Positions 31,601 through 59,691 of a DNA stretch of 64,000 nucleotides are shown piece after piece (positions within the stretch are counted from its first letter, which is position 1; every line of letters begins with the position of its first letter). The DNA comes from Siphlonurus alternatus (taxonomy: Eukaryota > Arthropoda > Insecta > Ephemeroptera > Siphlonuridae). Position numbers and translations under genes: made by a program. The stretch covers positions 26,378,118 through 26,442,117 of the forward strand of contig OX463780.1 in NCBI GenBank assembly GCA_949825025.1, read 5' to 3'. The notes under the pieces are model-generated. The model was given only the letters and a program-made list of their open reading frames with translations. It did not search any database and was not told the origin of the DNA.

Positions 31601-33110
31601 CCCCCGAAATTTTGGATTTAACATGGGCGATATATTATGCATTTCTCCCACTCCATTTTTTTTTAAACATTGGCATTATGAAGAGCGCACCCCCTTAAAT
31701 TTTTTTCTGCAAGGAGCGGATCCAGAAAAAAATGGGGGGGGGGCACTTTAAAAAGCCAGTGTTAAAAGAATTGGAGTGGGGGAAATGCCTATATTATTGC
31801 CCATGTTAAATCCGAAATTTCAAGCCCCCCCCCCCCTTGATCCGCGCCTCTATGAGACTCCCTCCCCTCTCCCCAAATGTTATTTATTTTATTTATTTAT
31901 CTCAAAGGAGCTGAGAGAAAGCAACATTAATTATTGTGACGATCGAGATCCTCAACTAATTTTCTGTTTTACAATATAATAATAGACCATAATTTTTGGA
32001 TCTGGGAAGAAAAAGAAGAATTATAAATTAAATTATAATTGTGCAATGGAACAATTTTGAGACTTGAAAAACATATATTTAATTTATATACAATATTACT
32101 GCAGCAGCTGCATTCATTGCTGATGTATTACGCAATATATTATTTGTGAAATAAATTACTATATGTACAGTATGTATAATAATATACATAATACAATATT
32201 GATATTCGACGGGCGTTAAAATATACATACCATATATTGCATAACACAGTTTAACTGTGTGTGGTATATAATTAAGGTCACATAAACATGACATAGAACT
32301 GTATTGAAAATATTTATTTAAATTGACTTATTAAAATAAGAAAGTACAGTATGCAAATAAGTATTGGTAAATAATTATTATGCAATATACAGTTGAACAG
32401 TATAAAATATCATATCTCTATCCTATCCTAATCATCCAGTCACCTAGCTTACTGCATGCTCTTATCCTTATAAATCGATCCAAAAACGGTTGTCGGGTAC
32501 CAAAAGGTGTATGGGCTCCGGCCTTTCCTAGCTGACCGCCCTCCGTCACGGTCTATACAAGTTCTACTCTTGAGTAGAAAAATTATTAGACAAAAGGAAA
32601 AATTATTTAAAATAATAATAATAAATAGAATGCATTGCATGTATGCACGTATTACATACACTACATGTGTGGTACACATTAAAAATCGTTATTAATTGCG
32701 CAACTTGATAGGTAAAACTCAATTTTGATTGTAAAGGAGAATGTGGACCCTAAAAAAAAATTAGCACTTCAGGTAGTACTGTATAAGGTAATGCAGCTGG
32801 ATATAAAAGGTGCAGGTAAACCTAATTTCCTGTGGTCCTTTGACATTACATTCATGTCTTTACTGTACATCATATAACAGCAGTACACAGTACATTTATG
32901 GTCCCACTTTAAGCATGCATGCCCACAGTATAATAAGGACATGACTAAAATCCCTGCATCAGGGATTTATAATACTGTGCAACTCTATAAGTCATATCAA
33001 AAATCATATTCTGTATTATTTATAACAATTGATTATAATACTCACCACTGCAAAGACTTCAAAGTATCTCTCCAAAAAGATGATAAGGAAGACATAATCA
33101 AGCTAGCCAT
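28674..33110 (-). CDS. MMD/PAQR10-11-like seven-transmembrane protein
   Basis: Member of the progestin/adipoQ receptor (hemolysin-III-related) family, closest to monocyte-to-macrophage differentiation factor; vertebrate members sit in Golgi or lysosomal membranes. Exons: 33110-33046, 31150-31063, 30410-30253, 29476-29224, 28859-28674. They join exactly in frame to 249 codons plus stop (human MMD 238). Conserved pieces in order: [18 protein letters not shown] (cytosolic N terminus into TM1), [15 protein letters not shown] with the conserved Ser and His, [17 protein letters not shown] with the conserved Asp, and [20 protein letters not shown] with the two conserved metal-site His residues. Start: ATG at 33108-33110; a second in-frame ATG follows at codon 6. 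Introns hold a retroposon (29725-30057) and foldback elements. Which MMD paralogue it corresponds to is not resolved. Confidence 0.93.
29725..30057. mobile_element. tRNA-like retroposon with 11-bp target duplications
   Basis: Flanked by GGTAATATGTG at 29714-29724 and 30058-30068. On the minus strand about 30037-29967 reads as a tRNA-derived head: A box TGGTGTAGTGG, an anticodon-arm-like segment with CTC (Glu type), and B box GGTTCAAATCCC (29977-29988). An A11 run lies at 30042-30052, at the tRNA end, which is the wrong end for a normal SINE tail, so the inserted transcript may have read on the plus strand. It is not a functional tRNA because the acceptor stem does not pair. Confidence 0.7.
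31250..31530. mobile_element. Foldback element in MMD intron 1
   Basis: Left arm CATTGCTCAAACTGACTT and GGTGGCAAAAAGAACTAA have reverse complements on the right (TTAGTTCTTTTTGCCACC and AAGTCAGTTTGAGCAATC). Non-coding. Confidence 0.75.
31565..31860. mobile_element. Hairpin MITE with GC-rich ends
   Basis: The left arm (CGAAATTTTGGATTTAACAT and onward) is the reverse complement of the right arm (ATGTTAAATCCGAAATTTCA). The ends are long G/C homopolymers next to GGATC, so the exact termini are unclear. The end sequence GAGGCGCGGATC resembles hAT-type MITEs. Confidence 0.7.
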
Positions 33111-33988: not shown

Positions 33989-34162
33989 TTAAGGGTAAGG
34001 TAACGCCACTAATGTTAAAAAAAATCCCTCACACAAAAATTATGAAAATAATTTAAAATGTTCTCCTCTACACCCCCTATCAGTAGCTAAAATATCAGGT
34101 ATACAAATACGATCTAGTTTTTGAGTTATGAATTTTTAAAGTTGACTATATATATACTTTAA

Positions 34163-34572
34163 GGGCATTGGGTGTAGCACCGGTAGTTGGCAACACTGAC
34201 GTATCTTCACCATGTTAATTTTTGATCATTGCTCCTCGGAGTAATTTTTATGCTAGAGCTAAGCTGATTGCTGTAGTATCAAGATAATTAGTAGCCCAAG
34301 TGCACAATTTGGCTAAATAAAGCCTGATTTAAAGAAAAGTATTTTTAGTAATTTTTTAAATTTGCATGCATTTTTCTAAAATATATAAAAAACTACTTTT
34401 CTTTAAATCAGGCTTTATTTAGCCAAATTGTGCACTTGGGCTACTAATTATCTTGATACTACAGCAATCAGCTTATAGCTCTAGCATAAAAATTACTCCG
34501 AGGAGCAAGGATCTAAAATTAACATGGTGAAGATACGTCAGTGTTGCCAACTACCGGTGCTACACCCAACCC
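34163..34572. mobile_element. Inner palindromic element (second level)
   Basis: Near-perfect inverted repeat of about 200-bp arms: TGTAGCACCGGTAGTTGGCA pairs with TGCCAACTACCGGTGCTACA. It lies inside the TTAA-flanked element at 33993-34923. Confidence 0.88.
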
Positions 34573-34573
34573 T

Positions 34574-34710
34574 AGTCGAAAAGTAAGAGTGCTAAGTGAT
34601 AATTTGAGCAGTAGTTAAGTAGTTGACTACTTGTTTTTAAGTAGTCAACTACTTGTTTTAAGTAGTTGACTACTGCTCAAATTATCACTTAGCACTTTAT
34701 TTTTCGACTA
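34574..34710. mobile_element. Innermost palindrome (third level)
   Basis: AGTCGAAAAGTAAGAGTGCT at the left pairs with AGCACTTTATTTTTCGACT at the right; the core is made of repeated AGTAGTTGACTACTTG units. It directly abuts the second-level element. Confidence 0.85.
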
Positions 34711-34927
34711 CGGAATGCCCTGCTTAACATGGAGAATAAATGAAACTTCCATGTTAAATTAGTCAACTTTAAAAATTCATAACTCAAAAACTAGGTCGTA
34801 TTTGTATACCTGATATTTTAGCTATACTGATAGGGGGTGAAGAGGAGAACATTTTAAATTTTTTTCAGAATTTTTGTGTGAGGGATTTTTTTTAACATTG
34901 GTGGCGTTAATACCTTTATACCCTTAA

Positions 34928-35785: not shown

Positions 35786-38700
35786 TTACAGGTGGTACAT
35801 TCTCAAGAGTATTGAGGAAAGAACGCTCATGTAACGCTCCCAAGCAGCCTTCAGGTCAGCCTCTCTGCAGAAAAAATTACATATTTTAGTAACATAAATC
35901 ACTGGACATGTTTTACTGAGGCTTTTTGAAGAACACTTTTGTCAAATTTAACTTAAAATATTAGGCCTGTTCGTAAACCCTGGTCGGTGTACACTTTCTG
36001 CACCCAATCGACCTTATATCGCATGTACATATGGTCGATTGGGTGCAGAAATTGTACACCGAGCAGGGTTTACGAACAGGCCTATTATATTTATTTTTTA
36101 AGTGTTAGGTGGCGAATTTAAATTTCTTATAAAATTTCAATCAATGAAATTTTAATCAATGTTTGCAGTCTAAATATTGCTTGAGAATTATAACCAGCTA
36201 GCATTAAAAAACTTGTCTTGTAATGACTAGAATATTTATTGCACTGTAAATGTAAATTTGAAGATGGTGTTTTTCGAAATAACACAAGAGTATAGAATAG
36301 TCTCAATAATATAAAAGCCTGACTTCTTAGCTAAAAACCAAAAAAACATTTCAAATATAATACATTTAAAAATTTCCTCGTTAAAATTATATAAATATTT
36401 ATTTTGATGACCCTAGTCAGTTTACTGATATGAAACATCCTGTAGAACTTTGAACTTTGAACCTACTTTTCAAACAGAATAGTGAGAGAGCTACTGTATA
36501 CTACCCTGTATATATACAGATAACAAAAAGCATTGATCTTTAAAAATTCTAAAGTTGTCACCATATCAAAATTCATCTAAGAAAATAATCTAAGCCTGAC
36601 CTTTAAATGTTGTGTGATTAAAATATTGAATATAACCAATTTGAGAGCATGTTACAGTTAAAATTAGTTTGAACACAGAAAACTGAAAATTGCACAAAAT
36701 ACTAATTACTTTTTTAAACTTTGGTTTTTACAACTTATATTATTATATTTTAACTGCCTTAAAATTATCTGCTGCTTGAATTAATACATACTGTAACGCT
36801 GCTTTTCCCTGTTATATATTACGAAGTGCTTGAATAAAAGAAAGCATTCGGTTCAACAGTTATTTGAATTAAATGTTGAAATTGGTTTCGCAGTTGACAG
36901 TATATTACTTTAATAATTATTTGGAAACTTTATGATCCAATTTACTGTATTTTACCAATAACTAAACATTAATTACAAAAACAATCTACTGTATTTTCTA
37001 TTTTTTATAACAACTAGAAAAATTATTTACCTGAGGGCATCCATCTCGAGAGCTGCCTGGGTGTAAGCTGAAAGGAAGATTCTCAGGTCCGAGTGAGACC
37101 AGCGAGCAGCATGCCACGGCTCCAGGCAGCGCTCCACCACATCAGCGAAAAGTCCTCTCATCTCGCGACTTCGGTGAAGGCCCCCTGCGATGCCCAGCAG
37201 AGCACGAGTGTAGGTGCGAAAGTTGGTCTCCACGTCCTGGTAGATTCTCTCTAAAAGCTGAGGACGGACCTTGCCACACACCAGGCTGGAACATCAGGAG
37301 GTCAAAGTTAGTAGTGGAGAAAGGGAACAGGTCTGACGGACGTGAAAATCATAGATGTCTAGTGAAGTTCTTTTTAAACAGGCAATTTTATACATCAAAG
37401 AACTTAAAATGCATTTCCGATAACTATAATACAAAAACTTTTGATAGAAATATAACCATTAAATACTATGAGCATAACAGTTATTACAGCACACATGCTC
37501 CAGTCTAATTTATTTCTTTTTTTTTTTTTTTTTTTTTTTAAATGCATTCTACAGCGATGATATATGTAAATTTTAAATTAACAAAAAATTTATGTAAAAA
37601 GTCATACCTAAATGAGTAAACCAATTAACAAAAATTGTTAGTTACAATGCAAGTTTACTATGTATTTTACACATTACTTAAAAACTGATGGAACTGTTAT
37701 TAATTTTTAATTGATTAAAATTCTACAGTAAGCCAGTATACATACAAAGCATTCACTTAAAAGGTAAATTCACTATGATGGAAAAAATGCTAGAGCAGAT
37801 TCCTATGTCATATGTAAATGCTTACAAATTATGTACATTTGAGTTTTCAAAAATCTGATATACATACAGTATTTAATGGACTTGTTGGGAGTTGGGTAAT
37901 ACTAGTGGTTTGCAATGTTAATTTCATCACTAATAACTACACAGTACCCTACATTTAATTTTCTGTATGGGAATTCAGATTTAAAACGGTAGCTACTGTG
38001 GCATGTAATAGTATAGTGAGACTCACTGCCTGTGCTCCTTGTCCTTGTCCATGACGACTCGAAGGTCTCTCAGGTCAAGCAGGAACTCTCGATCAAACTC
38101 TGTGTCGTCCTGGTCCGGTCCTGGTTCGTGGCACGACCAGCCGCTGATGAGGGCATGAGCGCAATGCACCAGGTCCTGCAGGTTGAGGTACTGCAACCTC
38201 CGCTTGCTGCACTCAAACCTCATGCTACCCAGGAACACCACGGCTGCATACACCCTGCATATGCACGAAGTAGTGTGCTCAACATTCATCCCTCTACTGG
38301 TAATTCATCTATTACTGAATAGACTATAATGATGTTACTTCAAAAAATACAGTAGTTGTACCATATTTTGAATACTGTACAGTGTTTTTGAGATTGTTTG
38401 CTTTTATTTATATTAAGAATTATATTTGCTAACTATAGCATGTTATGTTGTTGTATATGGAACTGCGTAAAATTAGAAAGACAAAAGTTCAAAGGAAATG
38501 AAATATTATTAAAAATTGATTATGAATTTGAAATTAGTATATTGTTCAAAACTGAACAATGCAATCACTCAGTAAAATGAGCTCACACTCACGCAAGTTC
38601 TTGAACAAGATTTACTGTGAGCACTGCAAATACAGTAAAAACTTGTCATTACATAACTTGTTGTTAGGTAAAACTTGATTTTGAGTAACGGAGAATCCCA

Positions 38701-41048
38701 TCAAAAATAATTAGCATTGTGTGTATAGGAGAAACTAACTTGATATAAGGTAAACCTAATTTTCTGGGCCCTTTGACTTTACGTAATAACAATTAAGTTT
38801 TTAAAGTATTTTACTTGCTATTTTTTATTGCTGACTGTCCTACAATCACAATGTTGCCACCCACCTAGCCTGCTCCTCAGCCAGCAGGAAGTTTTCCTTG
38901 ATGTTCTGTACCACAAGGCCGGGCATCTCCTCCACCAATTTGCTGACTCGCTTGGCATTGTCAAACTGTCGACTGCAAATACACCCAACGGGAGAAAGAT
39001 TTAGCTACTGTGCTAAAATGCAAAAAAATATTGGGTTTCTTCTAAAGCATAGTACTGTTCCCCCAAGTTTTATTTGTGTGCTTCTTTTGAGTGAATAAAA
39101 ACAGTTTCAAGCCAGCTGCAATTTAAGGCTGAAATCTAAATGCTGTGTTTATTTATAAGCATTTTTGTTTGGCATGCTCCCAATAATACTGCACTCTCAA
39201 GCACCACATACAGTACAAACTCTGTGGGTCTCAGCCAATAAGAGCTAGCTTAAGCACCACAAAGCGTGCACACATCAACTTTTTTTTTGAATTTTGTTAG
39301 ACTTGACAAGGATTAGAATAAATCTTACTGCAAGTGCGGGAATATTAATTATATTACGGCAGACACACCATAGGTCTCAACCATGAGACTACCATATTAC
39401 TAGGTGTGCACCATAAACAAAAAAAAAAAAAAAAAAAGTTCATATTTATTAGGTTCTTAAATGCTAGTTATTTAACTTTTTTATGAGTAATATTTATAAA
39501 CTTTTGCAATTCATAAATATGTATTGTAAATAATGTAAAAATCAATAAAAATACTGTATTACAGAGAAATGCCCTACAGTGACATACCGACAAGAGAATA
39601 AGTTGATGTTGGTCTTCTCGCTGAAGTCATCAAGGTCTTTTCTGTGGCGAGACGATAGCTTTTTGCCAAGCAGCTCTCGAAATACCTCATCGTCATACAT
39701 GTAGTATCTGGAAACCAAGATAGCAGTTAAAAACTTTAGGTACAATTCTTCAATAATTGAGAAGCAAGTGTATTTTGTACCAAATTGCGTGTGCTTTAGG
39801 ATCTTTCTTGAATGCCCAACCTCTCACTAATAAAGCTACTTCGTGAATCTTACTTCTCTATGAGGATCTTCCTGGTCTGTGGTTCTATCTGGAACTGCAG
39901 CTGCTCAGACAGCTTGGTAGGCGTGTGCAGTAACTTCTCGAGCAGTCCGTATGTGCGGTAGTGGTCTTGCACCTCTGACTGCAGCAGTTCTTCTGATGCT
40001 CCTGTCTGCTGTAGTGTGCCGCGACCAACCATAATCTCCAACGCCTCCTTGGCTGTGGTGGTAACAAATAAATGTTATAGTTAACGCTGGAGTGGAGTAT
40101 ACAGACATGAGCAAATTCTGTACGAATATATTTTATGTATATTGCATATACAGTACACTGCTGGGGGTAGAAAAGGCCAAGGCACTACATAGTACTTATC
40201 AATCATTTTTAAACATGGAAGCAATTTTTTTAAGCAAAAAATACATAATTAGAAACATGAAATAATACACCTAATGTACATATAATGTTTTTAGCACATA
40301 GTAAAGTCGTGATGAAAGAAAATGCTTCTATATACACTACGTTTATATGACGGTGTTTAATGCGTATTCGTTGACGACGGATAATGTTATTCTTATGAGT
40401 CGTCGTCAGTGAATACGCATTAAACACTGTCATGTAAACGTAGTGTATGTTTAACAAACTTATTTGACCAGTATTAGTGCCTTAATTGTCCTTTTCTCCC
40501 CCCAGCCGTGTACATATATGTATATGCATAATATATACTGTACTGTACATATTATATGATACACTGTATTATACTGTACAGTACTGTATGCATACCACAT
40601 TATGCCTCTCAATAAACATTATACTGTTCAGTACTGTACATCTGCATGTATGCATACATGCACATATTACACGCCCCATAAATATGCTGCATTAGATTAA
40701 TCCAAACAAAAAGGGGGCGTGGCAAAATATTTTTTCTTCATTCTCTCTCCAGCTATACGACAAAATTTTGCATTTTTTTTTTAAAGCTTTATATTATAAA
40801 CATAATTTTTAATAGTTAAATTTCAACTAAATTAATAACAATTTTTATGGCAATCTACACGTGCAATGATGCAATCTATAAATAAAGGTCCGTCGGCTCA
40901 GGACGCGCAGACCTGATTGTTTTCATACGTTTTATCTTTCACGAGACTCTTTTTACGTACGTGCAACACCATCCACCCAAAGCTGATATATTTCATGATC
41001 TATTAACGTATAATTACTAACAAATACGTCCACAGCTGAAGGAAACAT
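35786..41048 (-). CDS. FIBP: FIBP: acidic FGF intracellular-binding protein homologue
   Basis: FIBP binds internalised FGF1 in vertebrates; it is a conserved animal protein of cytosol, nucleus and membranes. Exons: 41048-40961, 40052-39854, 39707-39588, 38972-38865, 38254-38027, 37285-37031, 35864-35786. All phases join, giving 358 codons plus stop (human 357-364). Landmarks: VDVFVSNYTLIDHEIYQLWV in exon 1, QTGASEELLQSEVQDHYRTY, LGKKLSSRHRKDLDDFSEKT, SCRRQFDNAKRVSKLVEEMP, KRRLQYLNLQDLVHCAHALI, and the C-terminal AAWERYMSVLSSILLRMYHL. The start is ATG at 41046-41048 (minus strand). Only one base separates it from a giant transposon at 41050-49245, so the native 5' UTR and promoter lie beyond 49254. 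Transcription would have to start inside the element or be lost. Confidence 0.95.
35965..36085. mobile_element. Short foldback MITE
   Basis: GGCCTGTTCGTAAACCCTGG at the left pairs with GGGTTTACGAACAGGCC at the right. CCAATCGACC and GGTCGATTGG form the inner stem. About 120 bp, in the last FIBP intron. Confidence 0.85.
40332..40447. mobile_element. Short palindromic MITE in FIBP intron 1
   Basis: TACACTACGTTTATATGACG pairs with TGTCATGTAAACGTAGTGTA, and GTGTTTAATGCGTATTC pairs with GAATACGCATTAAACAC. About 115 bp, ending in TA on both sides. Confidence 0.85.
40496..40660. repeat. Dense TACAGTA/TACTGTA region
   Basis: Overlapping TACTGTA, GTACAGTAC and TATGCATAC motifs make this stretch almost entirely short palindromes. 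Similar clusters occur near 32340-32900, 55010-55110 and 56040-56120. I know of no function; it may be a compositional habit of this genome. Confidence 0.5.
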
Positions 41049-41124
41049 TGGAACTGTCTGGGTCTACGCCGGTCGTAGACGCATTAAATCTACGCCGGAA
41101 CTTTTTCAATGTTCAAAACATCCG

Positions 41125-41191
41125 TGACGTCACCCGACGTAGCTCTATTAAACCTACGTCGGTTGTATGAAACATATGATTAATGACGTCA
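41125..41191. promoter_or_regulatory. Two CRE-like TGACGTCA sites next to the FIBP ATG
   Basis: Octamers at 41125-41132 and 41184-41191, in the terminal repeat of the giant element. On the minus strand they lie about 77 and 136 bases upstream of the FIBP start codon. The mirror-image pair is at 49104-49111 and 49163-49170. They could act as promoter elements for FIBP; this is inference only. Confidence 0.4.
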
Positions 41192-41548
41192 CTGATATAA
41201 CAAATGCAATAAACGAGGCTGAAGTTCAAATTTTTTACTCGATCCAATGACTCGATCGTACGTGTAATTATATATTATTATAATTTATTGTAATAATTGT
41301 AATAAACGGTATTTTAATATGCAGAGTCTATAATATAATATAGTAATTTTTTTTATATTTATTTACTGTAAATATAATATATATATATATAGTGTATATA
41401 TATAATTAAACTAAATTATTAATATATATTATTAAATTATATGTAGCAATTATAATATATATAAAATATATACTAAAAAAAAAAAAAAAAAAAAAAAAAT
41501 AATTACATAAGGCAGTGCAAATGAAATTAAGCGGAGAGGGGTATTTAA

Positions 41549-42229
41549 AGTAGCTAGAGTGAGCGATTGCATTTTTTTTAATATTTTATTTTCTAAAAAT
41601 AGTTTAAGCTGCCCTTTATTGAGAAATGAAAACCAAAAAATTCCATCTCAAATAGTACGTTATTTCACCACAAAAAATTCCCAAAGTTGGTGTTTCGGAG
41701 GCCTTTGACGTGCAGCCTTATATGGAACATATATAAAACCGCGTTTTACTCCAACATTTTCTGAACTATATGCTACCATTTAAAAAATACCTACGTAATC
41801 TATATGATGAATTCTTTAATGGATTTTTAAATAAAAAAATATTTTACGGAGCCGTTTTTTCGGAAAAAAATCTTTAAGTTTTTGCGGGTATTAATTCCCA
41901 TAAGGATTTTTATGAGTTTTTTCCAAGAAAACGACCCCGTAAAAAAAATTTTATTTGAAAATTCATTAAAGAATTCGTCATAGATTACGTAAGTATTTTT
42001 TAAATGGTACCATAGTTCAGAAAAAGTTGGAGTAAAACGCGGTTTTATGTTCCATAATGCCGCGCTGCACGTTAAAGGCCTCCGAGAAACACCAACTTTA
42101 GGAATTTTTTGTGGTGAAACTATTAGAGATGGAATTTTTTGGTTTTCATTTCTCAGTAGAGGGCAGCTTAAACTATAATTTTTAAAAAATAAAATATTAA
42201 AAAAAATGAACTCGCTAGCTCACTCTACT
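41549..42229. mobile_element. TTAA-flanked hairpin nested in the giant element
   Basis: Flanked by TTAA (41545-41548 and 42230-42233). Ends AGTAGCTAGAGTGAGCGA and complement. It shares the internal words AAAAAATTCCATCTCAAATA and CTAAAAATAGTT with 56829-57476, so both belong to one family. Confidence 0.85.
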
Positions 42230-42268
42230 TTAAAAAAAACTTTCCGGCAAAAGAAATAAAAGCGTGAA

Positions 42269-42594
42269 TGGACAACATACATGAAAAAATTTTATTGCAG
42301 AAATGGATAAAGGGTGCCAAATTATGCTACTCTGAATTTTTTCAGATTTTTTTGAGACCCGGGACTATTTTTAAATAGTTATTGAAAGTCCTGTGATTTC
42401 AGTTGGCACCTCTGAATTCTTAATAAAAAGGATAGAGACTGGATACGCGCTACTGACGCCTCCAGGGCGTGGCCGCACTTTCAATAATTATTTAAAAATA
42501 GCTCTGGGTTTCAAAAAAATCTGAAAAATTTCAGAGTAGCATTTGGTACCCTCTATTCATTTCTGCAATAAAAATCTTTCATGCATGTTGTCCA
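42269..42594. mobile_element. Hairpin element (TGGACAACATACATG ends)
   Basis: Arms TTTTATTGCAGAAATGGATA and TTCATTTCTGCAATAAAA are complementary. The same arm sequence flanks the separate foldback at 49585-50785, so the family has another copy outside the giant element. Confidence 0.85.
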
Positions 42595-42639
42595 TTATAG
42601 GCGAAATATTATATTAATCGAAATTCCTTATGAGAAATT

Positions 42640-42955
42640 TACCCACAAAAATTACAATGAGATATAGTAGAATATGAAAAATTTAGTGGCTTGATTGCCT
42701 TGATCGAAAGAACGAAGGGGTAAAAATATGGTACTGTGAATTTTTTCAGATTTTTCTGAGACTGGAAACTTTTTAAAAAAATTATGCCCGTGACGTCATA
42801 AAATTAGACTTTTAATAATTTTTTAAAAATAGTTCCCGGTCTCAGAAAAATCTGAAAAAATTCACAGTACAATATATTTTTTTACCCCTTCTTTCGATTA
42901 CTAAGCCACTAAAATTTTCACATTCCATAATAATATCTCATTTTTTCTTTCCGGA
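42640..42955. mobile_element. Hairpin element related to 42269-42594
   Basis: GGTACTGTGAATTTTTTCAG pairs with CTGAAAAAATTCACAGTAC. The word TTTTTCAGATTTTTCTGAGAC links it to the neighbouring hairpin. TGACGTCA occurs at 42791-42798. Confidence 0.82.
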
Positions 42956-43620
42956 AAAAATAGTCCCGTAAAAAAATATAAACCCCCCTCAGATTTTGTT
43001 TAAAAAAATCTGATGTGTTTATAGACTTTATAGGAAGGCCTAAGAATTAAGGACGTACCAAGATGAATTATAAATATTTTTGAATTTCGTATATATAAAC
43101 TAAAAAGTTAAAGCGATATTACGAAATAAGCATAAAATGGTCCCCTGGCGCACTGTTGTATATTATATAGAATAGAAAATATATTTTTTGCGGTGAGGTT
43201 TTTAGGCAAGCCCATTATATTCTTGCACCTATTATATATATAGTGCTCGGAGCCAACTTTGCGTCGCTGCCGTTTGGCAAATATATTTTTTAATATTTTT
43301 TATTGTGAATTTTTCTGACCAATATTACAATTGCTAGGCTATAACCGTGGTACATATTGCAAGGAACAAAAATTAGCCAAGCATGCATTTTTTTATTAAG
43401 GTCTGTACATTATCAAAAAAAAGCGCAACCATGACAAATATGGACATACGTCTCATATAATTCCATTACTGTCTTTTGATAATTGTGTTATTTTACAAAA
43501 TCAATACGATTACTTGAGCATTGGGTTATCTTTATATAGTATAGGAAAAAAATATATAACAATTAAATATTAGAAATATTTTTGGCATGCTACCATGCTG
43601 TTGCATAGATCATGACTTAA

Positions 43621-43890
43621 AGTAGAGTGAGCGATTTAATTTTTTTGAATGTTTTATTTTCTAAAAATAGTTCAACTCGCCCTCTATTGAGAAATGAAAA
43701 CCAAAAAATTCCATCTCAAATAGCTTCACCACAAAAAATTCCCAAAGTTGGTGTTTCGGAGGCCTTTAACATGCATCCTTATGGAACAGAAAACAGCTTT
43801 TTACTCCAACTTCGTCTGAACTATGGTACCAATTAAAAAATTTGTACGTAATCTATGATGAATTCTTTAATGGATTTTCAAATAAATTTT
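43621..43890. mobile_element. Half copy of the AGTAGAGTGAGCGA hairpin
   Basis: Preceded by TTAA (43617-43620); matches the left arm of 41549-42229, then runs into a (TA)n tract. A second half copy lies at 47897-48270, also after TTAA, in the same orientation. Confidence 0.75.
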
Positions 43891-43915
43891 TATATATTTA
43901 TATATATAAATATAA

Positions 43916-43916
<1 letters not shown>

Positions 43917-44002
<86 letters not shown>

Positions 44003-44004
44003 AT
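43917..44004. repeat. (TA)n microsatellite
   Basis: About 85 bp of alternating TA inside the giant element. Confidence 0.95.
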
Positions 44005-44689
44005 TAGAACTATTTCACGTCATAGTGGCCACTTACACCACCAAATATTAAAGTTCTTTGATTTTGATAAATATCACAAGACATTTTTGTATAATGAATC
44101 TACAAAAATGCTTTTGTATTTTTCAAAAATATTCAAAATTGAGGGACTATGGGCAAATATGAAATGGCGTCAGAATGCAAATGTAGCAAACGGCGGCTCC
44201 AGTAACTCGGAAAATATTATGCATATAGATTAAATTTGATTTTTTCTATGGATGCACAACCATATGTGTCTACAACATCCTGCTTTCAGATTTTCTCTAT
44301 AGGTTTTAGTTTTTTTGTTATACCGGTTCCCGTAAGCCAAGTATGACGTTTTTGAAGCATTTGCTTTCCGCAGCCCAAATATAGGCTAAATTTTTTTTAA
44401 ATAAAAAATTGATTCTATATAGCTCCTAAACATCTCTTCTTACCATATAACTCCTAAAAATAAAAAAAAAAAAATTCTCAACTAATGGCACAGTAAACGA
44501 AAAAGGGTACAATTCGTTAAGGTACCTACTTTGCGGGCCAAAAAAGTCGATGTCATTCAAACTTTAGGAGAATTTTAATGACACGACTGGAATCCTCGTA
44601 TCTTAATTAGTAAGAATCAAAAATAATCTCGATGTACCTCTCGAGTATTTCCTCGCAAAAGCTATACTGGGGTAACTCCCTCTATACGC

Positions 44690-45890
44690 ACCGCGTGCGC
44701 ACCTTGTCATCAGACCAGTGATAGCACGCCGCGGCCGAGTGCTGTTGTGTTTATTGACATGAAACTTACGCAAAAATAATATTTTATTGTATCTATATGG
44801 AATAACCTTGCAACTTGCTACTAAATTACGTCACTGAGATAATTTTCCTTTTCCATTTGCTATTATAATTAAGATATTAGGTACGTGGGATTGAATTTTG
44901 CGTAAAAATGGTAGCAAATATCGTCGCTTCAGAATGCAAATCACATAATTACAAAAAAAATTGATGGGACTTTGACCCTTATGTTCTAGTAAAATAAGGT
45001 TTAAAATTGCATCAAATTTTTTTATAGTTACGTGATTTGCATTCTGAGGCGACGATATATAGAAGGAAAATTATCTCAGTGACATAATTTAGAAGCAAGT
45101 TTATTTCATAGATGCAATAAAATATTATTTTTGCATAAATTTCATGTCAATAAACCAGGAATCGGATGCAGATGCAAGATTCACACGGATGCGCAAAAAT
45201 GGGCTTGCATCCGCATCCGTGCATCCCAGATGCACAGGGAAAAATGAATGCATCCGGATGCGCATCCCAGATACACGGGAAAAAATGAATGCATCCGGAT
45301 GCGCATCCCAGATGCATGAAAAATAAATTTGCTTAATTTGCATCCGGATGCGCATCCACGAATGCACGAAAAATAAATTTGCATCCATTTAACACTTTTT
45401 TTCCTCTTTTTTTTATCAGGTTTTTTGCTAAAGGCCTCTAAATAAATCTTAAACACGAGTCATTTTTTTAACATTTATTTGCCACTTATCGTTTAAAATT
45501 GCAAGAAACAAAGTGTATTATAAAAACCAAAGATCGGATGCAGATGCAAGATGCACACGGATGCGCAAAAATGGGCTTGCATCCGCATCCGTGCATCCCA
45601 GATGCACGGGAAAAAATTAATGCATCCGGATGCGCATCCCAGATGCATGGAAAATAAATTTGCATCCAGATGCATGAAAAATAAATTTGCATCCGGATGC
45701 GCATCCATGGATGCACGAAAAATTAATTTGCATCCGGATGCGCATCTCGGATGCACGAAAAAAATGCGTGCATCCGGTCCCTGCAATAAACACAACAGCA
45801 CTCTGACGTTTCGTGCTATCACGGATTTGACGAGGTGCGCACGCGGTGCGTATAGAGTAGTACTATATAAAGGGAGTTACCCCAGATTAA
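44690..45890. mobile_element. Third-level inverted repeat
   Basis: GGGGTAACTCCCTCTATACG at about 44670 and GCACCGCGTGCGCACCT pair with the complements at about 45825-45885. A smaller hairpin (44757-45155) and a minisatellite (45160-45790) lie between. Confidence 0.85.
45160..45790. repeat. Palindromic GCATCCGGATGC minisatellite
   Basis: Many repeats of GCATCCGGATGCGCATCC with spacers such as CAGATGCACGGGAAAAA and AATAAATTTGCATCC, in two blocks (45160-45390 and 45535-45785) separated by unique sequence. The core GGATGCGCATCC is palindromic. The open frames here, up to 126 codons, are repeat artefacts. Confidence 0.93.
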
Positions 45891-45892
45891 TA

Positions 45893-47027
45893 TCAGGTCA
45901 GTCCAATAAGGAGATGGGCTTGGGTCAATAGATTTCGATGAATTTCACATATGTTACACATCTAACCTATAGGTTTTGATGAGGTTTGGGCATTATTTTT
46001 TGAAATTTCAAAAAAACCCGAATTTCAGGAATTTTCAAAAAATCAATAAAGAGGACAATCTCGAGAGATAAAAAAATTTGTATCTTAAATTCTGCTCCAC
46101 ATAGATTTATGATTTAAATTTTTTCAAGTTTGTAGTCAGATTGCCAAACTTTTTTTGCATCGAAAATTTTGACCCTGAAATTTTATTAAGGTCAAATGCC
46201 AGAGGTCAAACTACAAAAACGTATAACTTCATACCAAAGCACATTGTTAAAAAAATCAAGATATATATAGGTTTAAATCCTTCTATAAAAAACCGTTTTG
46301 AGAAATTCAAAATTTTGAAATTGCGTTTTTTTTTATTAATTATTCCGAGGTTTTTTGAAAAATATTTTCAAGTTTTGTCATGAATTTTACACAGGTTACT
46401 CATCTGACCTAGGTTGATAAGGTTTGAAAATATTTTTTTTTTTAATTTGAAAAAATTATTTCCTAATCTTATCAACCTGGGTCAGATGAGTAACCTGTGT
46501 AAAATTCATGACAAAACTCGATTTTTTTTTTCTAAAAACCTCGGAATAATTAGTAAAAAAATTCGTAATTTCAAAATTTTGAATTTCTCCATAAATTTGA
46601 AACCAGTTTTTTTATAGAAGGATAACCATTGTTTAAAACCCATATTTTGATTTTTTTAACAATGTGCTTTGGTATGAATAAGTTATACGCTTTTTGTAGT
46701 TTGACCTCTGACTTTTGACCTTAATAAATTTTCAAGGTCAAAATTTTCAATGCAAAAAAGTTTGGCAATCTGACTAAAAACTTGAAAAAATTTAAATTAT
46801 AATTCTATGTGTAGCAGAATTTAAGATACATTTTTTTTTTATCTCTCGAGATTGCCCTCTTTATTGATTTTTTGAAAATTCCTGAAATTCGTTTTTTTTT
46901 TTCGAAATTTCGAAAAATAATGCCCAAACCTCATCAAACTAGATTAGATGTGTGACATAATATATGTGAAATTCATCGAAATCTATTGACCCAAGCCCAT
47001 CTCCTTATTGGACTGACCTGATATTAA
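45893..47027. mobile_element. Large hairpin with about 550-bp arms
   Basis: ATATCAGGTCAGTCCAATAA at the left faces TTATTGGACTGACCTGATAT at the right. Complementarity continues inward to a centre near 46450. It sits between the third- and second-level repeats. Confidence 0.92.
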
Positions 47028-48917
47028 CCCCCAGTATAGCTTTTGCAAGGAAATACTCGAGAGGTACATCGAGATTATTTTTTATTCTTACTAATTAAGA
47101 TACGATCGAGGATTCCAGTTGTGTCATTAAAATTCTCCTAAAGTTTGAATGACATTGACTTTTTTGGCCCGCAAAGTAGGTACCTTAACGAATTGTAGTA
47201 TTGTACCCTTTCTCGTTTACTGTGCCATTATATAGTTGAGAAAAAAAATATATTTTTAGGAGTTTTATGGTAAGAAGAGATGTTTAGGAGCTATATAGAA
47301 TCAATTTTTTATTTAAAAAAAATTTAGCCTATATTTGGGCTGCGGAAAGCAAATGCTTCAAAAACGTCATACTTGGCTTACGGGAACCGGTATAACAAAA
47401 AAACTAAAACCCATAGAGAAAATCTGAAAGCAGGATGTTGTAGACACATATAATATGGTTGTGCATCCATAGAAAAAATCAAATTTAATTTATGCATAAT
47501 ATTTTCCGAGTTACTGGAGCCGCCGTATGCTACATTTGTATTCTGACGCTATTTCATATTTGCCCATTGTCCCTCAATTTTGAATATTTTTGAAAAATAC
47601 AAAAACCATTTTTTTAGGTTCATTATACGAACATGTCCTCTGTGATTTAATTTTATTAAAATCAAAGAACTTTAATATTTGGTGGTGTAGTACTGGCCAC
47701 TATGACGTGAAATGGTATATAATATTCGATGTTGCTTTTAGAAGGTTAGCTATATAGTACATTTTTGGAGCTATAAGCTTAGTACTCGAAAAATACATGA
47801 ATTAATTTATATATTATAGACGTACCAAATAATCGAAGTAATGAAGTACGTATATGTACGTCATGCAGACCATGCAGTTTATTATATATTTATTAAAGTA
47901 GAGTGACGATCGAGCGATTGCATTTTTTTAACATTTTATTTTCTTCCGATAAAAAATTCTTCACCAAAAAAATTCCCAAAGTTGTTGTTTTGGAGGTTTT
48001 TTAAATTTTTAACATGTAGTCTTACATGGAACAGAAAACAGCTTTTTACTCGAAACTTATTAATTAATTGGTCCAAAAAGTTCCTATCTAGCTATAATAT
48101 ATAATGAATTCTTCAATGCATTTTCAAATATTTTTTTACGGACCATTTTCCTGGAAAAAAAATTGGAATTTTTGTGGGTTTTAATTGCCCATAAGGAATA
48201 TTTCAATGGGAATCTTTGACCTGCCAATTTGGTCGCCATATTTTTACTGGAAGATATTCGTATGTTGAAGATCAGCAGATTTTGACACCATGGGCATATA
48301 TTGCGCAAATTTCCCGCTCCAAAATCAGAATTAATACAAGTACCGCGATTTTTTTTTAGAGTTTCTTTTTACTTAAACTGAGCTGGGGTCTGTGGGGTTG
48401 CAAATAATATTTTAATAGTGGCAAATGTAAAAGGTTATTGACAATACGTGATTTTCAATTCGGAAACAGAACTTGTGTAAAGAATTAATTAACAATACCG
48501 CGATCGAAAAATTGCTGCGTATAAATATAATAGGATCTTACGTGTAGTGCGCCCAATCTGTTCTTAATTGTAAAAGTATAATGTTAGGACAAAGGTCGCG
48601 ATGACGTCAAGGTCACAGCTTCCCATTAATATATAATTATATATATTTCACTCAATTCACGTACGCTTTTATTTCTTATGCCAGTTTTGCCGGAAAGTTT
48701 TTTTTTTTTTTTATACCTTCGTCGTCACTTAATTGCACTATCTGCATGCCTTTTAGTTAAATTAATTTAGTATATGATTATATAATATAATATATATTAT
48801 ATATATAATATTATATAGTATATATATTATAATATATATATATAATTATTTATATACAGAATTAATTTTACAGTTGCGAATTTTTAATAATATATTTTAA
48901 TAATTTAATTATGATAT

Positions 48918-48949
<32 letters not shown>

Positions 48950-49254
48950 AAATATAATATATTTACAATTAATAAATATAAAAATTACTACAGACTCTGC
49001 ATAATACCGTTTATTACAATCAATTATAATATAATTACACGTACAAGTCAGTGGAGTAAAAAATTTGAACAATTAGCTCCGTTTATTGCATTTGTTATAT
49101 TAGTGACGTCATGAATCATATGTTTTATACAACCGACGTAGGTTTAATAGAGCTACGTCGGGTGACGTCACGGATGTTTTGAACATTGAAAAAGTTCCGG
49201 CGTAGATTTAATGCGTCTACGACCGGCGTAGACCCAGACAGTTCCGGAAAGATT

Positions 49255-49584
49255 ATTAAATTTGAGTACCACACACACCGTCTACAAAACAATCTACAAA
49301 ATATTTTTTTTATTTATTTTTTAAAACATGCGTAAGTAGCATGCGTTTGTTTTTTCTGGTTGCAACAGCGCAGAATTTAAAAAATAAAAAAATTCAAAAA
49401 TTCGTAGAGAATTCATAAAATAATAAGGTAAATAATTTAACTATAATAAACATTTAAAATTTCAGATAATATAACATTGTAATTTATTTTAAATTTAAGT
49501 ACCCAACAAAATAATCAAGTAATTCTAGAAAAAGCAGAGAAATTAGAATAAAGCTGTATAATAAAATAAAGCTAATGCTAATAA
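49255..49584. other. Former upstream flank of FIBP, now displaced
   Basis: If the giant element is removed, this AT-rich sequence lies directly upstream of the FIBP ATG, so it should hold the ancestral FIBP 5' UTR and core promoter. I see no clear TATA box or CpG enrichment. Confidence 0.5.
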
Positions 49585-50785
49585 TGGAATATCGACCTCA
49601 ATTTTTTTATTGCAGAAATGGATAGAGGGTACAAAGTTATGCTACCCTGATTTTTTTTCAGATTTTTTAGAGCCCGGGAAGTATTTTTAAAAAATTATTG
49701 AAAGTCCTTTTTGTGACGTCACGCGGCGGCAAGTCTTATCCAGGGCTAATCCTCTATTGAACCGGGTAAATAAAGTCACTCCCAGAGACACCCTACAGAG
49801 ACCTCCGTGTCTTATGGGTAGAAATTTGAAGAACCTTGAACTTAGTTCCACCGGAATTCCGAGTGGCCACGCCACTATAATATCAACCAATCATCATGGG
49901 GTGTAGTCTGTAATAAGTTCTGAACGTTCAGAACCTTCGATTTAGCGTTCCGAAATTATGTTCAGAACCATTTCCGAGGTTACCCGAAGTGAGTCAGCTG
50001 AATTCAAAAAAGAGGTTCCGGGTGTTGCGAACTTTTCCTCCGAACTATATCAGAACTAGAGTCAGCTGATCACAATGAAAGTGTTCCGTTATTTGATGTT
50101 CTGAAGTTAATGTTTTTGTTCAGAGTCAGTCCGTAATCTCTCAAATGTTCTGAACGTTCTGAACCTAATACGGAAGACACCCATGGTTTCATTATTAATG
50201 ATGTCATTCGAGCTGGTCAATCACTGATCACAAAATCGCCGATTGGCCATTTCGGATGACGTCACTGATGACGAACCCAACGGTGAACGGTGATTGGTCG
50301 ACAGTAGTGTGGCCACTCTGAATTCCAGTAGAACTAAATTCAAGGTTCTTCAAATTTCTACCCATAAGACACGGAGGTCTCTGTAGGGGGTCTGAGTCAC
50401 TCCCGACCGTTACAAAAAAAAAAAAAAAATTGATTGTTGAAATTTGTAAACAACAAGCAAATGACCCCTTTTTAACCAATAGTAAAGCGTTTCAGCAAAA
50501 AGGGTTACTTCTAAGCCAATCAGAATCCAGAATTCGGTCCTCATAAGCCGGAATAAGGGAGTGACCATACCCCCTATCAATAGAGGATTAGCCCTGGTCC
50601 TATCCTTTTCTTAAGGAGCGGTGTCTCGTGACGTCACAAAAAGAACTTTCAATAATTTTTTAAAAATAGTTCCCGGGCCCTAAAAGATCTGAAAAAAATC
50701 AGGGTAGCATGACTTTGCAGTTTGCACCCTCTATCCATTTCTGCAATAAAAAAAAATTGAGGTTGATACTCTATTGTTTAATATG
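49585..50785. mobile_element. Foldback element with nested foldback inside
   Basis: Outer arms 49590-49725 and 50625-50760 (CAGAAATGGATAGAGGGTAC and complement) are the same family as 42269-42594. The inner arms 49735-49885 and 50300-50400 plus 50560-50610 (GACACGGAGGTCTCTGTAGG and complement) form a second palindrome. The inner right arm has an extra insertion of about 160 bp (50402-50560). TGACGTCA sites lie at 49714, 50257 and 50629. Confidence 0.87.
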
Positions 50786-51531: not shown

Positions 51532-54500
51532 CTAGTCGTCTGGTGTCCAAGATTCATCCACATCAGAGTCGTCAATGAATGAACCGTCGTACGAGTCATC
51601 ACTGTCGTCAGAGTCCCAGTCTGAAACAGTCATAGAAGTTTTTATAAGTTAAGTGTATCATGCACTATTACATAAGACTATATAATAGAAGGGCGTGGGG
51701 AAAAAAGGTTGCAGCTTTTGATTAAAAAAAATTGTCCTTGCTTTAATAATTTTTTGATCCAACCCTTCAAGTTAAACTTTGTTATACAGTAGTAGGAGTA
51801 ACAATACCATATATATTTTTATTACTATTAATATATATTTTTTGTGCAAACTATTTAATTTTAGGTAATAATATAAAGACTATTTAGCTAACTGCTTTTG
51901 GACAATTAGATTTGTGGAGTTAAAAATAATGACTGTAAATTGTAACTTCATAATTAAACTTTGACTTTATCTTATTTGGAGGGGAAAAAATTAAACTGAC
52001 AACAATAAAAAGTACTCATAAATGTTAGAGAGTAACATGACATTTATGACATTTACACTGTAACAGAGATCTCCAGACCATATCTCTGGTTAGATGAATG
52101 ACAATTAAATTTGATCTCTCAGTTAGCTGTTATAAAATGTATTGCTAAAAGACATGAACATTTGTGATTTAAGTCAATTTACCCTGCCGTTTCGTCTTCT
52201 TGCCTTTAGCCTTGCGTGGCTTGCGTGCTCCTTGGATAGGTGGGGACTGTGGTGGGGAGGTGGGAACTGGGGGCTGAGTATGGTCGTAATCCTTCTTGTG
52301 CTGAGGGTTAGCACGGAAGCAGCTTGTGCCGAAGGGGCACACTAGCAGCGGCGCAGGGGGAGGGTAGTCAACGTCTCCGGGATGGCTCATGTCCACCTTG
52401 TGCTGAGGATTTCTCCTGCACACACAAACAATATATCTATTAGTGGCTACGTCAATGCAAAATAATGAATAAAAATGTTCACTATATTTACGGAAACTAC
52501 TGTATATAATACAAACAATTTAATGCAATATAACTTAAGAAAGGCGTTTGTTACTATTAAATATAATAGCAATTCATATTAAGTCTTCAGTATGTCTATA
52601 CTTTTTCAACAAAACAATCCACCTACCTATAAAGTATAAATACAAATACTTGAGTGTACAGTATTTATTCACTTTCACTAGTTCACTACTGCATTGCTTG
52701 AATACCAAGCCTTCATTATAGTGACAAAATGAAAAAGAAGAGTAAAAAATACTATGGATTTCTAACCTATAACAGGCGGCTCCATAAGGGCAGACTGGTC
52801 GCTGGACCGCAGCTGCTGCTGAAGCGACAGAATCTTCCTCCTCATCACTCAACGAGTGTAATGTAACACTCTGAGGAACAGCAACGGCACTCACAAGAGA
52901 AGGGTCTGGAGGAGGGGCCACGGCCGAGCTTGCTTCTCCACTCTCTTCCTCCTCATAGAAAGTATCATTAGACTTGTCTTCAAGATTTTCTTCATTGACC
53001 TTTGTGGCTTTAGAACTAGCCTCTTCATCAGACTCAAGGAAAGTGTCATTGCTTTTTTCTACCTCATTAGGTGTGCTGGTGGCCGCAGTATTTTTACACT
53101 CAGCCTCTTCTGGCTCACTGTCACTCAACTTTGCTACATTCGATGTGCCAGCGACAAGTTTACCACCTTTAGGCACCACCTTTTTCTTTTTGATTGTTTT
53201 TTCTTCTGCTGGTGTCTCAACAGTGCCATTTTTCTTGTCTTTCTTCAGTGGCACTTTTTTTTTAACAACAGGAATCTCCTCTTCATCCTCACTGTCATCC
53301 AGCCAAGCAGGAAGTTGTCTCTTCACAGGAGTCTGTGATCACACCGGCAGAAACAAGAATCAGTTAATGGTTAATGTCCCAAAAGTCAACTGAAAAATTA
53401 TTATTTTATGTATATCATTTAAACTAACGGACCCAAAATTTTTAGAGCTAGCATTTTTTTTTGCCAGGCATTCTACAAATGCTTGGTGAAATTGAACTTT
53501 CAAAGATGGCTAGACTGGGTCCTCTACTAACGTAAGTCTTATCTCCCTCAAAATCTGCAAATCTGTATCTCTGTCTCTTGTGAACTACAGTGCCAGTAAA
53601 TGAGGCAGGAGTAAAGTTTATGCTCTAGTGAGAGGTACATGTGGCAGTTCTCTAATTAGTGTTTATGTCACTTATATTCTGATAAATGATCATTAATATG
53701 ATAGAACAGATGCTACAATAGACATTTGACTTTTGTTATATGATTAATTTCAACAAATTAGATCAGATAAATGTATAATATACTCTTTTCTCAAATGTTA
53801 ACTGTCTACTTTAGCTTCCGGTGGTTTGTTGTAAAGTGAATATGTAACTATGTATACAGTATTATGATCTTTTTATTTAGTTAACTAACCAAAATTCGAG
53901 TCTTTTTCTCTGGTACCGGTACTTGAGCACTCGAAACAGTAGGACTTTGCTCAACATTCAAAATCTCGACTTGGTATCCAGGGGATGAGGGCATCAAGAA
54001 GAACACATCCCCATTCTGCAGCTGTACTGTCTCATCCTTTTGCAGGATGGTCAAATTTGTATCCCCTCTACGACGATATGAGAACAGCTTTGTACTGTGG
54101 ACCTGAAGAAAAAAAAAGCATACTGGTATATCAAGTTGTGGCTTACTTAGACCAAACAATTTTGACATGACAACAAAACTTTACTACAAATTTAAATTAA
54201 TAAAGTTAGTAATTATGTTTACAGGAATAAAATTTTGATAATTATAATAACAATTAATGTTTCGATATGAACTTTTCCAATTTTTTCTTTAGACGACTTT
54301 GTCTCATTTGTCAAGATCCCACCACATAAATGACAAAAATTCAGTATTCAGAAGGCTTTCAACTGTTTCAATGGTATGGACAGCAGCTGGAATTTGATGG
54401 ATAAGTGGGATTTTTTTATTATAAAAAAACTTGGGCAGAAATACAGTAGTAAAATTAGTAAATTTCTTCTAAAAATTAAGTACAGTAGGTGATTTTAATA

Positions 54501-56361: not shown

Positions 56362-56828
56362 CTACGAAACAATATTAACATATTTCACAGTTATGGGTAT
56401 AATTTTTATCCTGTCTCATGAGTCTTATCCTTTGCTAATGATTTTTTACCTTTAGATCCTTTTAATCGTCACTTTCTTGACAGCAAGGGCTTGCCTTCCC
56501 AATTTTCCCGAGTTCCCGCTGGTTTCATCAGCTGTGTTCGTTTAAAAAAAAAAAATAAATGAACCATGACCATGCGCATGAGCGCACATGCGTTTGTTTT
56601 TAATGGCGCGCAACGGCACATACTTTTAATTTTTTTTTAGCTTGCAAATTATAAAAGCGCAGCAAACATTTTTCTGAGGATATTTATATATATATATGGG
56701 AACTTAATTTGAAGACTCTCAGGCTCAGTCTCAGCTGAAGACCAAAACATCAAGTATATATCACATTCCTTTAGAGACTGCGGATCGACCTGCAGAAAGA
56801 TTCGATTCAGCAGACAAAATTAAATTAA
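56362..56828. other. Upstream region of APLF
   Basis: No coding exon seen. The promoter of APLF is expected here. An A10 run and a TATATATA tract are present but not convincingly placed. Confidence 0.4.
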
Positions 56829-57476
56829 AGTAAAGTGCACACGAGAAAAAAAAGTTGAGTTAGTGGTATCTAAAAATAGTTCAAGTGGTCCTCCATATGG
56901 AACTGAAATCAAAAAAATTCCATCTCAAATAGGTTCTCCAGAAAAAAATTCCAAAGTTTGAATGAGCGCGTCGCTTAACATTGGGCCTTACCGGACAAAC
57001 ACCCTCAATTATCTCGAAAAAATACTGCGTTCAGTGGTATAAAAAAAATATAGCGATGTTCTATGACTTGAACTTTAACCACAAGCAAATTTTGAGCATT
57101 TTTTTTCGAATCAGATTTTCCGTAAAAAAATCTTGAAAATCGTCCATGTTAAATTATCATAAGAAATTTCCAAGATTTTTTACAGAAAAACTGATTCGAA
57201 AAAAAATGCTCAAAATTTGCATATGGTTAAAGCTCAAGTCATAAAACATCGCTATATTTTTTTTATACCACTGAACGCAGTATTTTTTCGAGATAATCGA
57301 GGGGTTTTGTCAGGTAAGGCCCAATGTTAAGCGACGCGCTCATTCAGACTTTAGAATTTTTTTCTGGAGAACCTATTTGAGATGGAATTTTTTGGATTAA
57401 AGTTCCATATGGAGGACCACTTGAACTATTTTTAGGTAGTACAAACTCAACTTTTTTTTCTCGTGCGCACTTTACT
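56829..57476. mobile_element. TTAA-flanked foldback element (AGTAAAGTGC ends)
   Basis: Flanked by TTAA at 56825-56828 and 57477-57480. Arms of about 320 bp are near-perfect complements (AGTAAAGTGCACACGAGAAA and complement; GGTCCTCCATATGGAACT and AGTTCCATATGGAGGACC). It shares internal words with 41549-42229. Confidence 0.93.
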
Positions 57477-57627
57477 TTAAGACGCTATATAATATGCATA
57501 TATATATCAGTGACTTTAGAATATTAAATAATAATTGTAATATATGATGCATTGAATGTTATATATATCTATTTCACTTTTCGGACTTTTTTACCTTTGC
57601 CGATGTTCGATGGCCTTCATCTGTTTA

Positions 57628-58848: not shown

Positions 58849-59691
58849 ATGTCTTCCAAGACGCCAGCAGAAGATTCGAGTACTGAAAATAAAAAACTCG
58901 AAGAGAAGATATCTGAATTAGAAGAAATTATTGAAGAGCTTCAAAGCAAGGTAGAGACTGCTGAAATGCAAGGAGCTAGAGAGAATGCATTGCATACTCA
59001 AATTGGTACTCTGGAGAAAATGGTAACAGAGTCTAACACCAGCATCAAGAATCTTCAAAAAGAAGTTAACAGCCTGACCACACGAATTGAAGGACTCACC
59101 ATAGACCTTGGAGCATGTTATCGAGATCTCCAGTCCTCCGAGGAGGTAAACTTGGAAATCAAGTCCGAGGCAGTGACATTCGAGGAGCTGCAGTCTGTCA
59201 TTCAGCTGATGAAGCAGGAAGAAAACAACCTACGGGTAATGAATGACCAACAAAAGCAGAAAATCCTGTCTCTTTAACGGTACGGAGACAACTTCAAGGC
59301 ACTTGCTGCTCGGGTGTTACAGGAGACAAGTTGTGATCTTGTAATAATGGACCCTTCTTTGAAGTCAAGTGTGGGGATGTTCAAAAAGTCCAAGGAGCAG
59401 TATGACAATTTACTAAAGACAAACATTGATGATGTCGTCAGCATCCCCGATGAATTAGAAGAGACCATGTTCTCTGTATATGCAGAAACAAGTGAAAATC
59501 CTGCAGAATTGGAACAGGTTGTCGAGACAGCTACTGCAAACGAAAAAGTTGAAGAAAACAAGTGCGGAAAATGTAAGAAGAATTTTTCAACAAAAGGAAA
59601 CCTGGCAAAGCACAAAAAATATGTTAAGGGTAAGGTAACGCCACCAATGTTAAAAAAAATCCCTCTCACAAAAATTCTGAAAAAAATTTAA
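58849..59691 (+). pseudogene. Intronless coiled-coil plus zinc-finger ORF, broken by a stop and a MITE
   Basis: One reading frame starts at ATG 58849 (context AAGATCGAG ATG TC) and is open for 142 codons, stops at TAA 59275-59277, then continues open in the same frame to the end of the insert. The first part is a strong coiled coil (ENKKLEEKISELEEIIEELQ). The second part has YGDNFKALAARVL and then a Cys/His finger: CGKCKKNFSTKGNLAKHKKY at about 59560-59622. At 59624-59627 a TTAA marks insertion of a 347-bp foldback, so the last codons are read from transposon DNA. The TAA could come from CAA by one transition. It could be a decayed single-exon gene, a retrocopy, or a mobile-element protein; I recognise no family. 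Confidence 0.6.

What the first reader, a model, noticed from the sequence alone, without database searches (positions are those of the whole stretch)
41041..49254. 8.2-kb nested palindrome inserted at the FIBP start codon
The 9-bp target (GGAAACATT) contains the complement of the FIBP ATG (41046-41048), and the element begins one base upstream of it. The distal target copy (GGAAAGATT) has the ATG changed to ATC. All seven FIBP exons are otherwise intact and in frame. So either the gene is now driven from the transposon end, or the allele is silenced, or the insertion is polymorphic. Intact coding sequence after such an insertion suggests a recent event or promoter capture.
Basis: partly seen in the sequence, partly recalled or inferred. 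Interest (0 to 1): 0.88.

Follow-up and report, generated by a model that had tools for sequence, protein, structure and literature searches.

The report
Young jumping DNA at mayfly gene start
A large piece of jumping DNA with no detectable genes of its own has very recently inserted one base before the start codon of a conserved mayfly gene, which makes it a good natural test of how a gene copes with losing its normal start region, although jumping DNA landing near gene starts is itself a known kind of event.

Summary
Window 41050-49245 is a complete transposon with long inverted ends and a 9-bp target duplication (8 of 9 bases match) whose gene-side copy holds the FIBP ATG. FIBP is intact (7 exons, 358 aa), and all six FIBP matches in the assembly lie in this window. 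Contig lengths identify the mayfly Siphlonurus alternatus, chromosome 3.

The genome changes the reading. The 8.2-kb nested palindrome was not built here: it is one copy of a multi-copy family, without detected coding capacity, that moves as a unit. Two other copies differ from it by only 1 and 2 substitutions over 8.2 kb. The FIBP copy has one private substitution, so the insertion is probably tens of thousands of years old. Intact coding sequence is then expected and says little about promoter capture.

Best reading: a young, probably still segregating insertion allele. Transcription from the transposon end is possible (two TGACGTCA motifs and an initiator-like motif lie within 150 bp of the ATG), but that leader is unusually structured, and expression and population frequency were not testable here. 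Deposited second-haplotype contigs and RNA-seq could decide. The element resembles Mutator/foldback transposons, but no transposase was found and the genome-wide search for one did not complete.

The parts
41041..41049 (.). gene-side copy of the 9-bp target duplication (GGAAACATT), contains the complement of the FIBP ATG at 41046-41048
49246..49254 (.). distal copy of the target duplication (GGAAAGATT), one mismatch; the ATG reads ATC here
41050..49245 (.). whole element, 8,196 bp, one copy of a multi-copy family
41050..41436 (+). left terminal inverted repeat; outer 119 bp identical to the right arm; holds TGACGTCA at 41125 and 41184 and repeats of CTACGYCGG at 41064, 41090, 41154 and (reverse) 41134
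48883..49245 (-). right terminal inverted repeat (82.6% over 391 gapped columns against the left arm)
41544..42234 (.). internal self-palindrome
42267..42596 (.). internal self-palindrome
42656..42942 (.). internal self-palindrome
44001..47725 (.). inner foldback, arms 44001-44672 and 47029-47725 (90.5% with gaps)
45887..47027 (.). innermost palindrome; its centre (about 46440) is where longer copies carry a further 2-kb palindrome
40961..41048 (-). FIBP exon 1 with the start codon
35786..41048 (-). FIBP gene, seven exons from ATG to TAA, 358 aa
49255..49600 (-). flank that was immediately upstream of the FIBP ATG before the insertion; one full-length match in the assembly

Best explanation
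A non-autonomous DNA transposon of a large foldback family, moved by a transposase encoded elsewhere (inferred), inserted very recently one base before the ATG of FIBP, the only FIBP locus found in this mayfly assembly. A 9-bp staggered cut duplicated a stretch that includes the ATG (shown). The gene kept its coding sequence, but its old upstream DNA now lies 8.2 kb away behind a long inverted repeat (shown). The allele is young and most likely still segregating (inferred from age). FIBP output from it is probably altered or reduced, any surviving transcript starting in or near the transposon end (inferred).
For: Borders and duplication; whole-length copies elsewhere with 1 and 2 substitutions; perfect 9-bp duplications at 9 of 13 paired copies and at the 1 of 19 further copies where both ends were found; one private substitution in 8,196 bp, about 42,000 generations, 95% 1,000-234,000, at a recalled rate of 2.9e-9; FIBP coding sequence constrained (4 of 120 invariant columns broken); all six FIBP matches lie in this window; leader from the element end folds at z -2.5 with three upstream ATGs, against z 0.3 for the empty-site leader, taking a start at 41195.
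Against: No second individual, haplotype or transcript was seen; no empty site was found in the assembly. One mismatch in the target duplication is improbable for so young a copy (expected 0.002). Three of 13 paired copies have no clean duplication and one has a 5-bp filler. If this copy was the source of its two near-twins, or if copies convert one another, the insertion may be older.
Confidence: 0.6

Rival explanations
1. Promoter capture: the transposon end now drives the only FIBP gene efficiently, and the allele is fixed or favoured.
For: Two TGACGTCA sites, an initiator-like TCAGTG at 41195 and a CpG-rich end lie within 150 bp of the ATG; FIBP is single-locus and constrained; the element is in the assembled haplotype. 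A rice MULE upstream of PsbS1 goes with higher promoter activity (PMC4178011, passages), and outward-reading promoters near Mu ends are reported (title of Barkan and Martienssen 1991 seen in a reference list; paper not read).
Against: TGACGTCA is common in foldbacks of this window, 16 against 0.38 expected, so it is not special to this site. The leader is unusually structured and has three upstream ATGs, all closed before the FIBP ATG. No expression data.
Confidence: 0.2
2. Splice-out: FIBP is still transcribed from beyond 49254 and the element is removed as (part of) an intron, using an acceptor in the element end.
For: On the gene strand a run of T ending in AG at about 41473-41499 is acceptor-like.
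Against: No GTRAGW donor in 49255-49950 on the gene strand; transcripts would carry inverted repeats able to form a long hairpin (inferred).
Confidence: 0.12
3. Assembly artefact: a mis-join through a high-copy family, or a switch between haplotypes, put the element here.
For: The family is high-copy and near-identical, a known source of mis-joins; the duplication has one mismatch.
Against: An 8-of-9 duplication exactly at the borders and flanks that together make an intact FIBP start region are not expected of a mis-join. The genome paper reports 53-fold HiFi reads and QV 54.3 (PMC11069044, part 1 of 3 read).
Confidence: 0.04

Closest known systems
Mu elements of maize (PMC2774946, abstract and passages)
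   Same: Long inverted ends (about 215 bp), 9-bp target duplications, preference for gene 5' ends including regions 5' of ATGs.
   Different: Plant family; no sequence relation or transposase shown here; this element is 8.2 kb of nested palindromes.
Tm1 Mutator/Foldback elements of root-knot nematodes (PMC3169594, passages)
   Same: Animal elements with long composite inverted ends and mostly 9-bp duplications (45 of 53 with 8-10 bp), non-autonomous copies, nesting reported.
   Different: Tm1 ends are built of 13-15 bp tandem repeats and a transposase-bearing copy is known; neither was found here.
Tetris foldback of Drosophila virilis (PMC4079207, passages)
   Same: Insect foldback without coding capacity, 8-10 bp duplications, assigned to Mutator on that basis.
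   Different: Only three structurally complete Tetris copies were reported; here at least two copies nearly identical to this one exist and 40 end hits were scored.
OsMULE upstream of rice PsbS1 (PMC4178011, passages)
   Same: A MULE insertion upstream of a gene with a 9-bp duplication, present in some lines and absent in others; promoter strength differs between alleles.
   Different: 0.4 kb upstream there, one base before the ATG here; expression was tested there, not here.

Membership tests
Mutator superfamily (MULE) | 9-bp target duplication (mostly 9, 8-10) | tested here: met
   9 of 13 paired copies perfect, 1 of 1 of the further resolved copies, this copy 8 of 9; L010 9 bp with a 5-bp filler, L011, L013 and L022 no clean duplication
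Mutator superfamily (MULE) | long terminal inverted repeats | tested here: met
   about 390 columns, outer 119 bp identical
Mutator superfamily (MULE) | mobilised by a MULE transposase | tested here: inconclusive
   8 ORFs of the element: no Pfam match over cut-off, best PF21227 at E 0.16. The genome search for PF10551 did not complete
Foldback elements | long inverted ends with little or no coding capacity | tested here: met
Foldback elements | ends made of short tandem repeats (as in FB and Tm1) | tested here: inconclusive
   four CTACGYCGG-type 9-mers per arm in both orientations, not a tandem array
hAT and P superfamilies (recalled: 8-bp duplications) | 8-bp duplication | tested here: not met
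   9 bp in every clean case. Merlin, which can make 9 bp (recalled), is not excluded

The most novel reading that the evidence does not exclude
Promoter capture caught in progress: in Siphlonurus alternatus the only FIBP gene is now transcribed from the inverted end of a foldback transposon, with CREB-type TGACGTCA sites in that end giving FIBP a new regulation, while the empty allele still segregates.
Probability: 0.15. Interest if true: 0.7.

Novelty: new member of a known kind. Interest (0 to 1): 0.42.

Why it matters
A conserved, single-locus gene with a datable insertion exactly at its start codon is a clean natural experiment on what a transposon end can do as promoter and leader, and deposited reads from the same species could answer it. 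The family is of some interest too: a recent amplification of an 8-kb element without detected genes, made of palindromes within palindromes.

Tried and rejected
Dating by the two arms of this one copy: rejected. The arm differences are inherited: the right 200 bp of L009, L011, L012, L016, L018, L020 and L025 equal those of the FIBP copy, so only differences between copies date the insertion.

Nested insertions built up at FIBP: rejected, because the full 8.2 kb recurs as a unit.

FIBP as a dispensable second copy or a pseudogene: not supported.

Empty site on another contig of this assembly: not found. The 49255-49600 flank has one full match and one weak partial match (75% over query 126-209, on C6).

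Transposase: 8 ORFs of the element gave no Pfam match over cut-off. The extra segments of longer copies were only read as ORF lists and not run against Pfam. The end pattern GGAACTGTCTGGGTCTACGCCGG has no exact match in viral contigs. A paper search for foldback element + target site duplication + 9-bp + Mutator-like found none. A search for mayfly, MITE and DNA transposon (at least two of three) gave a listing only, in which I saw nothing about this family. TGACGTCA with MITE, transposable element and promoter: one unrelated paper.

Full report
WHERE IT IS. FIBP of the window is closest to mayfly proteins: Ephemera danica 79% and Cloeon dipterum 65%. The genome tool places the window at C3:26378118-26442117 of an assembly of 455,680,777 bp in 102 contigs. 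Contig lengths such as C3 50,231,148 and C11 70,536,023 equal the scaffold N50 and the longest scaffold of Siphlonurus alternatus ieSipAlte2.1 (PMC11069044, part 1 of 3 read), so this is that species, chromosome 3. The paper gives 455.8 Mb in 107 scaffolds, one haplotype, with contigs of the second haplotype deposited apart.

THE OBSERVATION. The element spans 41050-49245. Its arms match over 391 alignment columns at 82.6%; the outer 119 bp are identical and the next 68 bp hold 12 differences. The flanking 9-mers match at 8 of 9; of 400,000 random pairs each, 0.044% in the window and 0.034% in the local flanks do as well. FIBP lies on the minus strand with seven exons, GT-AG introns and no stop in 358 codons. 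Its ATG is the complement of 41046-41048, inside the gene-side duplication, with one base between it and the element. The ATG lies 5 residues before the conserved VDVF motif, where eight relatives begin 4 to 14 residues before it. In the joined empty site the same ATG is the first in-frame start after an in-frame stop.

WHAT IT IS. A 200-base query over the left junction gave 40 scored places (of 198 candidates) at 98-100% identity, this copy included. I fetched stretches of about 10 kb at the first 20 of the 39 others. In 13 of 20 both ends lie on the stretch; 7 show one full end only, L027 with a partial second end. Two copies, L009 and L011, match the FIBP copy over the whole 8.2 kb with 2 and 1 substitutions; L010, L016, L018 and L020 are 0.35-0.71% away. 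L013 and L023 are about 98% identical in their aligned pieces; L012, L015, L025 and L028 are mostly 91-94%; L022 is rearranged. The nested palindromes therefore belong to a mobile unit and were not built at FIBP. Perfect 9-bp duplications flank 9 of the 13 pairs. L010 has the 9 bp with a 5-bp filler; L011 and L013 have no clean duplication and L022 gives none. For the other 19 places I fetched short stretches at a guessed distance; 1 of 19 gave both ends, again with a perfect 9-bp duplication. Coding capacity was not found: 8 ORFs of 92-135 aa from the element have no Pfam match over cut-off, and among the 20 long stretches only L013 (in the flank) and L026 hold ORFs of 200 aa or more, both reverse-transcriptase-like by eye and not run against Pfam. 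The family is thus a non-autonomous foldback, Mutator-like by duplication length and end length only.

AGE. The FIBP copy has one private substitution (42813) in 8,196 bp against six copies. With a recalled insect rate of 2.9e-9 per generation this is about 42,000 generations (95% 1,000-234,000). The tree groups it with L009 and L011 at 100/99 support with end branches of about zero length. Two caveats apply. If the FIBP copy was the source of the other two, its insertion could reach back into the stem of that group (0.002 per site, roughly 0.7 million generations at the same rate). Conversion between copies would also hide age. Arm-to-arm divergence within the copy is inherited and is not a clock.

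WHAT IT DOES TO FIBP. All six FIBP matches in the assembly (7 candidates scored) are exons of this window, so no second gene was found to cover for it. The coding sequence is constrained: 4 of 120 columns invariant in eight relatives are broken, against 1-26 for each relative left out in turn. On the gene strand the last 150 bases before the ATG hold two TGACGTCA and an initiator-like TCAGTG, and the end is CpG-rich (observed/expected 1.77 for 41050-41236 against 0.85 for the window). They also hold three upstream ATGs, all closed before the FIBP ATG. Taking a start at 41195, the leader with 20 bases of gene folds at -53.9 kcal/mol (z -2.5) against -25.0 (z 0.3) for an empty-site leader of equal length. 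The pre-insertion side (49255-49950) has no donor-like, TATA-like or initiator-like site by simple patterns, and its one TGACGTCA (49714) lies in a neighbouring foldback. An acceptor-like T-run ending in AG lies at about 41473-41499 in the element end, which leaves splice-out open. These facts allow transcription from the transposon end and suggest that such a leader would be poorly translated; none shows either.

COMPARISON. Mu of maize has about 215-bp ends, makes 9-bp duplications and prefers gene 5' ends, including regions 5' of ATGs (PMC2774946, abstract and passages), so an insertion one base before an ATG is what a Mu-like element would often do. Tm1 (PMC3169594) and Tetris (PMC4079207) are the nearest foldbacks I saw, and the rice PsbS1 MULE (PMC4178011) the nearest case of an insertion going with changed promoter strength; all were read as passages only. 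Membership in Mutator stays open because the transposase search did not complete.

UNEXPLAINED. One mismatch in the target duplication is improbable for so young a copy (expected 0.002, upper 0.012). L011, equally young, has no clean duplication and L010 carries a filler, so imprecise insertion or repair may be a habit of this family. That is a guess.

VERDICT. A real, well-bounded and very young transposon insertion at the start codon of a conserved gene found at one locus. The kind of event is known; the functional outcome is open and could be tested with deposited data.

Noticed in passing
window, 16 sites: 876, 887, 934, 945, 10569, 15700, 41125, 41184, 42791, 48602, 49104, 49163, 49714, 50257, 50629, 61746: The CREB-type octamer TGACGTCA occurs 16 times against 0.38 expected (60 first-order Markov simulations, highest 3); many sites lie in different foldbacks.
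   Followed up: partly
L015:4384-6439, L019:4495-6971, L024:4516-6562, L027:4505-6555: Four longer copies of the family carry a further 2.0-2.5 kb palindromic segment at the point that corresponds to the centre of the innermost palindrome (window about 46440), as if the element grows, or is trimmed, at hairpin centres.
   Followed up: partly
41041-41049 and 49246-49254; flanks of L010, L011, L013: Imperfect target duplications at some very young copies: one mismatch here, a 5-bp filler in L010, no clean duplication in L011 and L013.
   Followed up: partly
731-1092, 11689-11959, 31606-31821, 33989-34927, 35955-36091, 49580-50778, 56825-57480, 59624-59978, 61014-62377: The window holds many other foldback or palindromic elements, several nested.
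   Followed up: no
18345-21383 (+): Open frame of 1,013 aa with a reverse transcriptase domain (RVT_1, E 1.8e-30), an apparently intact LINE-type retrotransposon ORF.
   Followed up: no
45152-45777: Array of GGATGCGCATCC-type repeats inside the element (two 134-bp blocks 92% alike, 372 bp apart).
   Followed up: no
52160-54180 (-): The next gene upstream of FIBP, on the same strand, has a sub-threshold PBZ zinc finger match (E 7.6e-4, 19.8 bits against cut-off 22.7) and looks like an APLF-type DNA-repair gene (name recalled).
   Followed up: no
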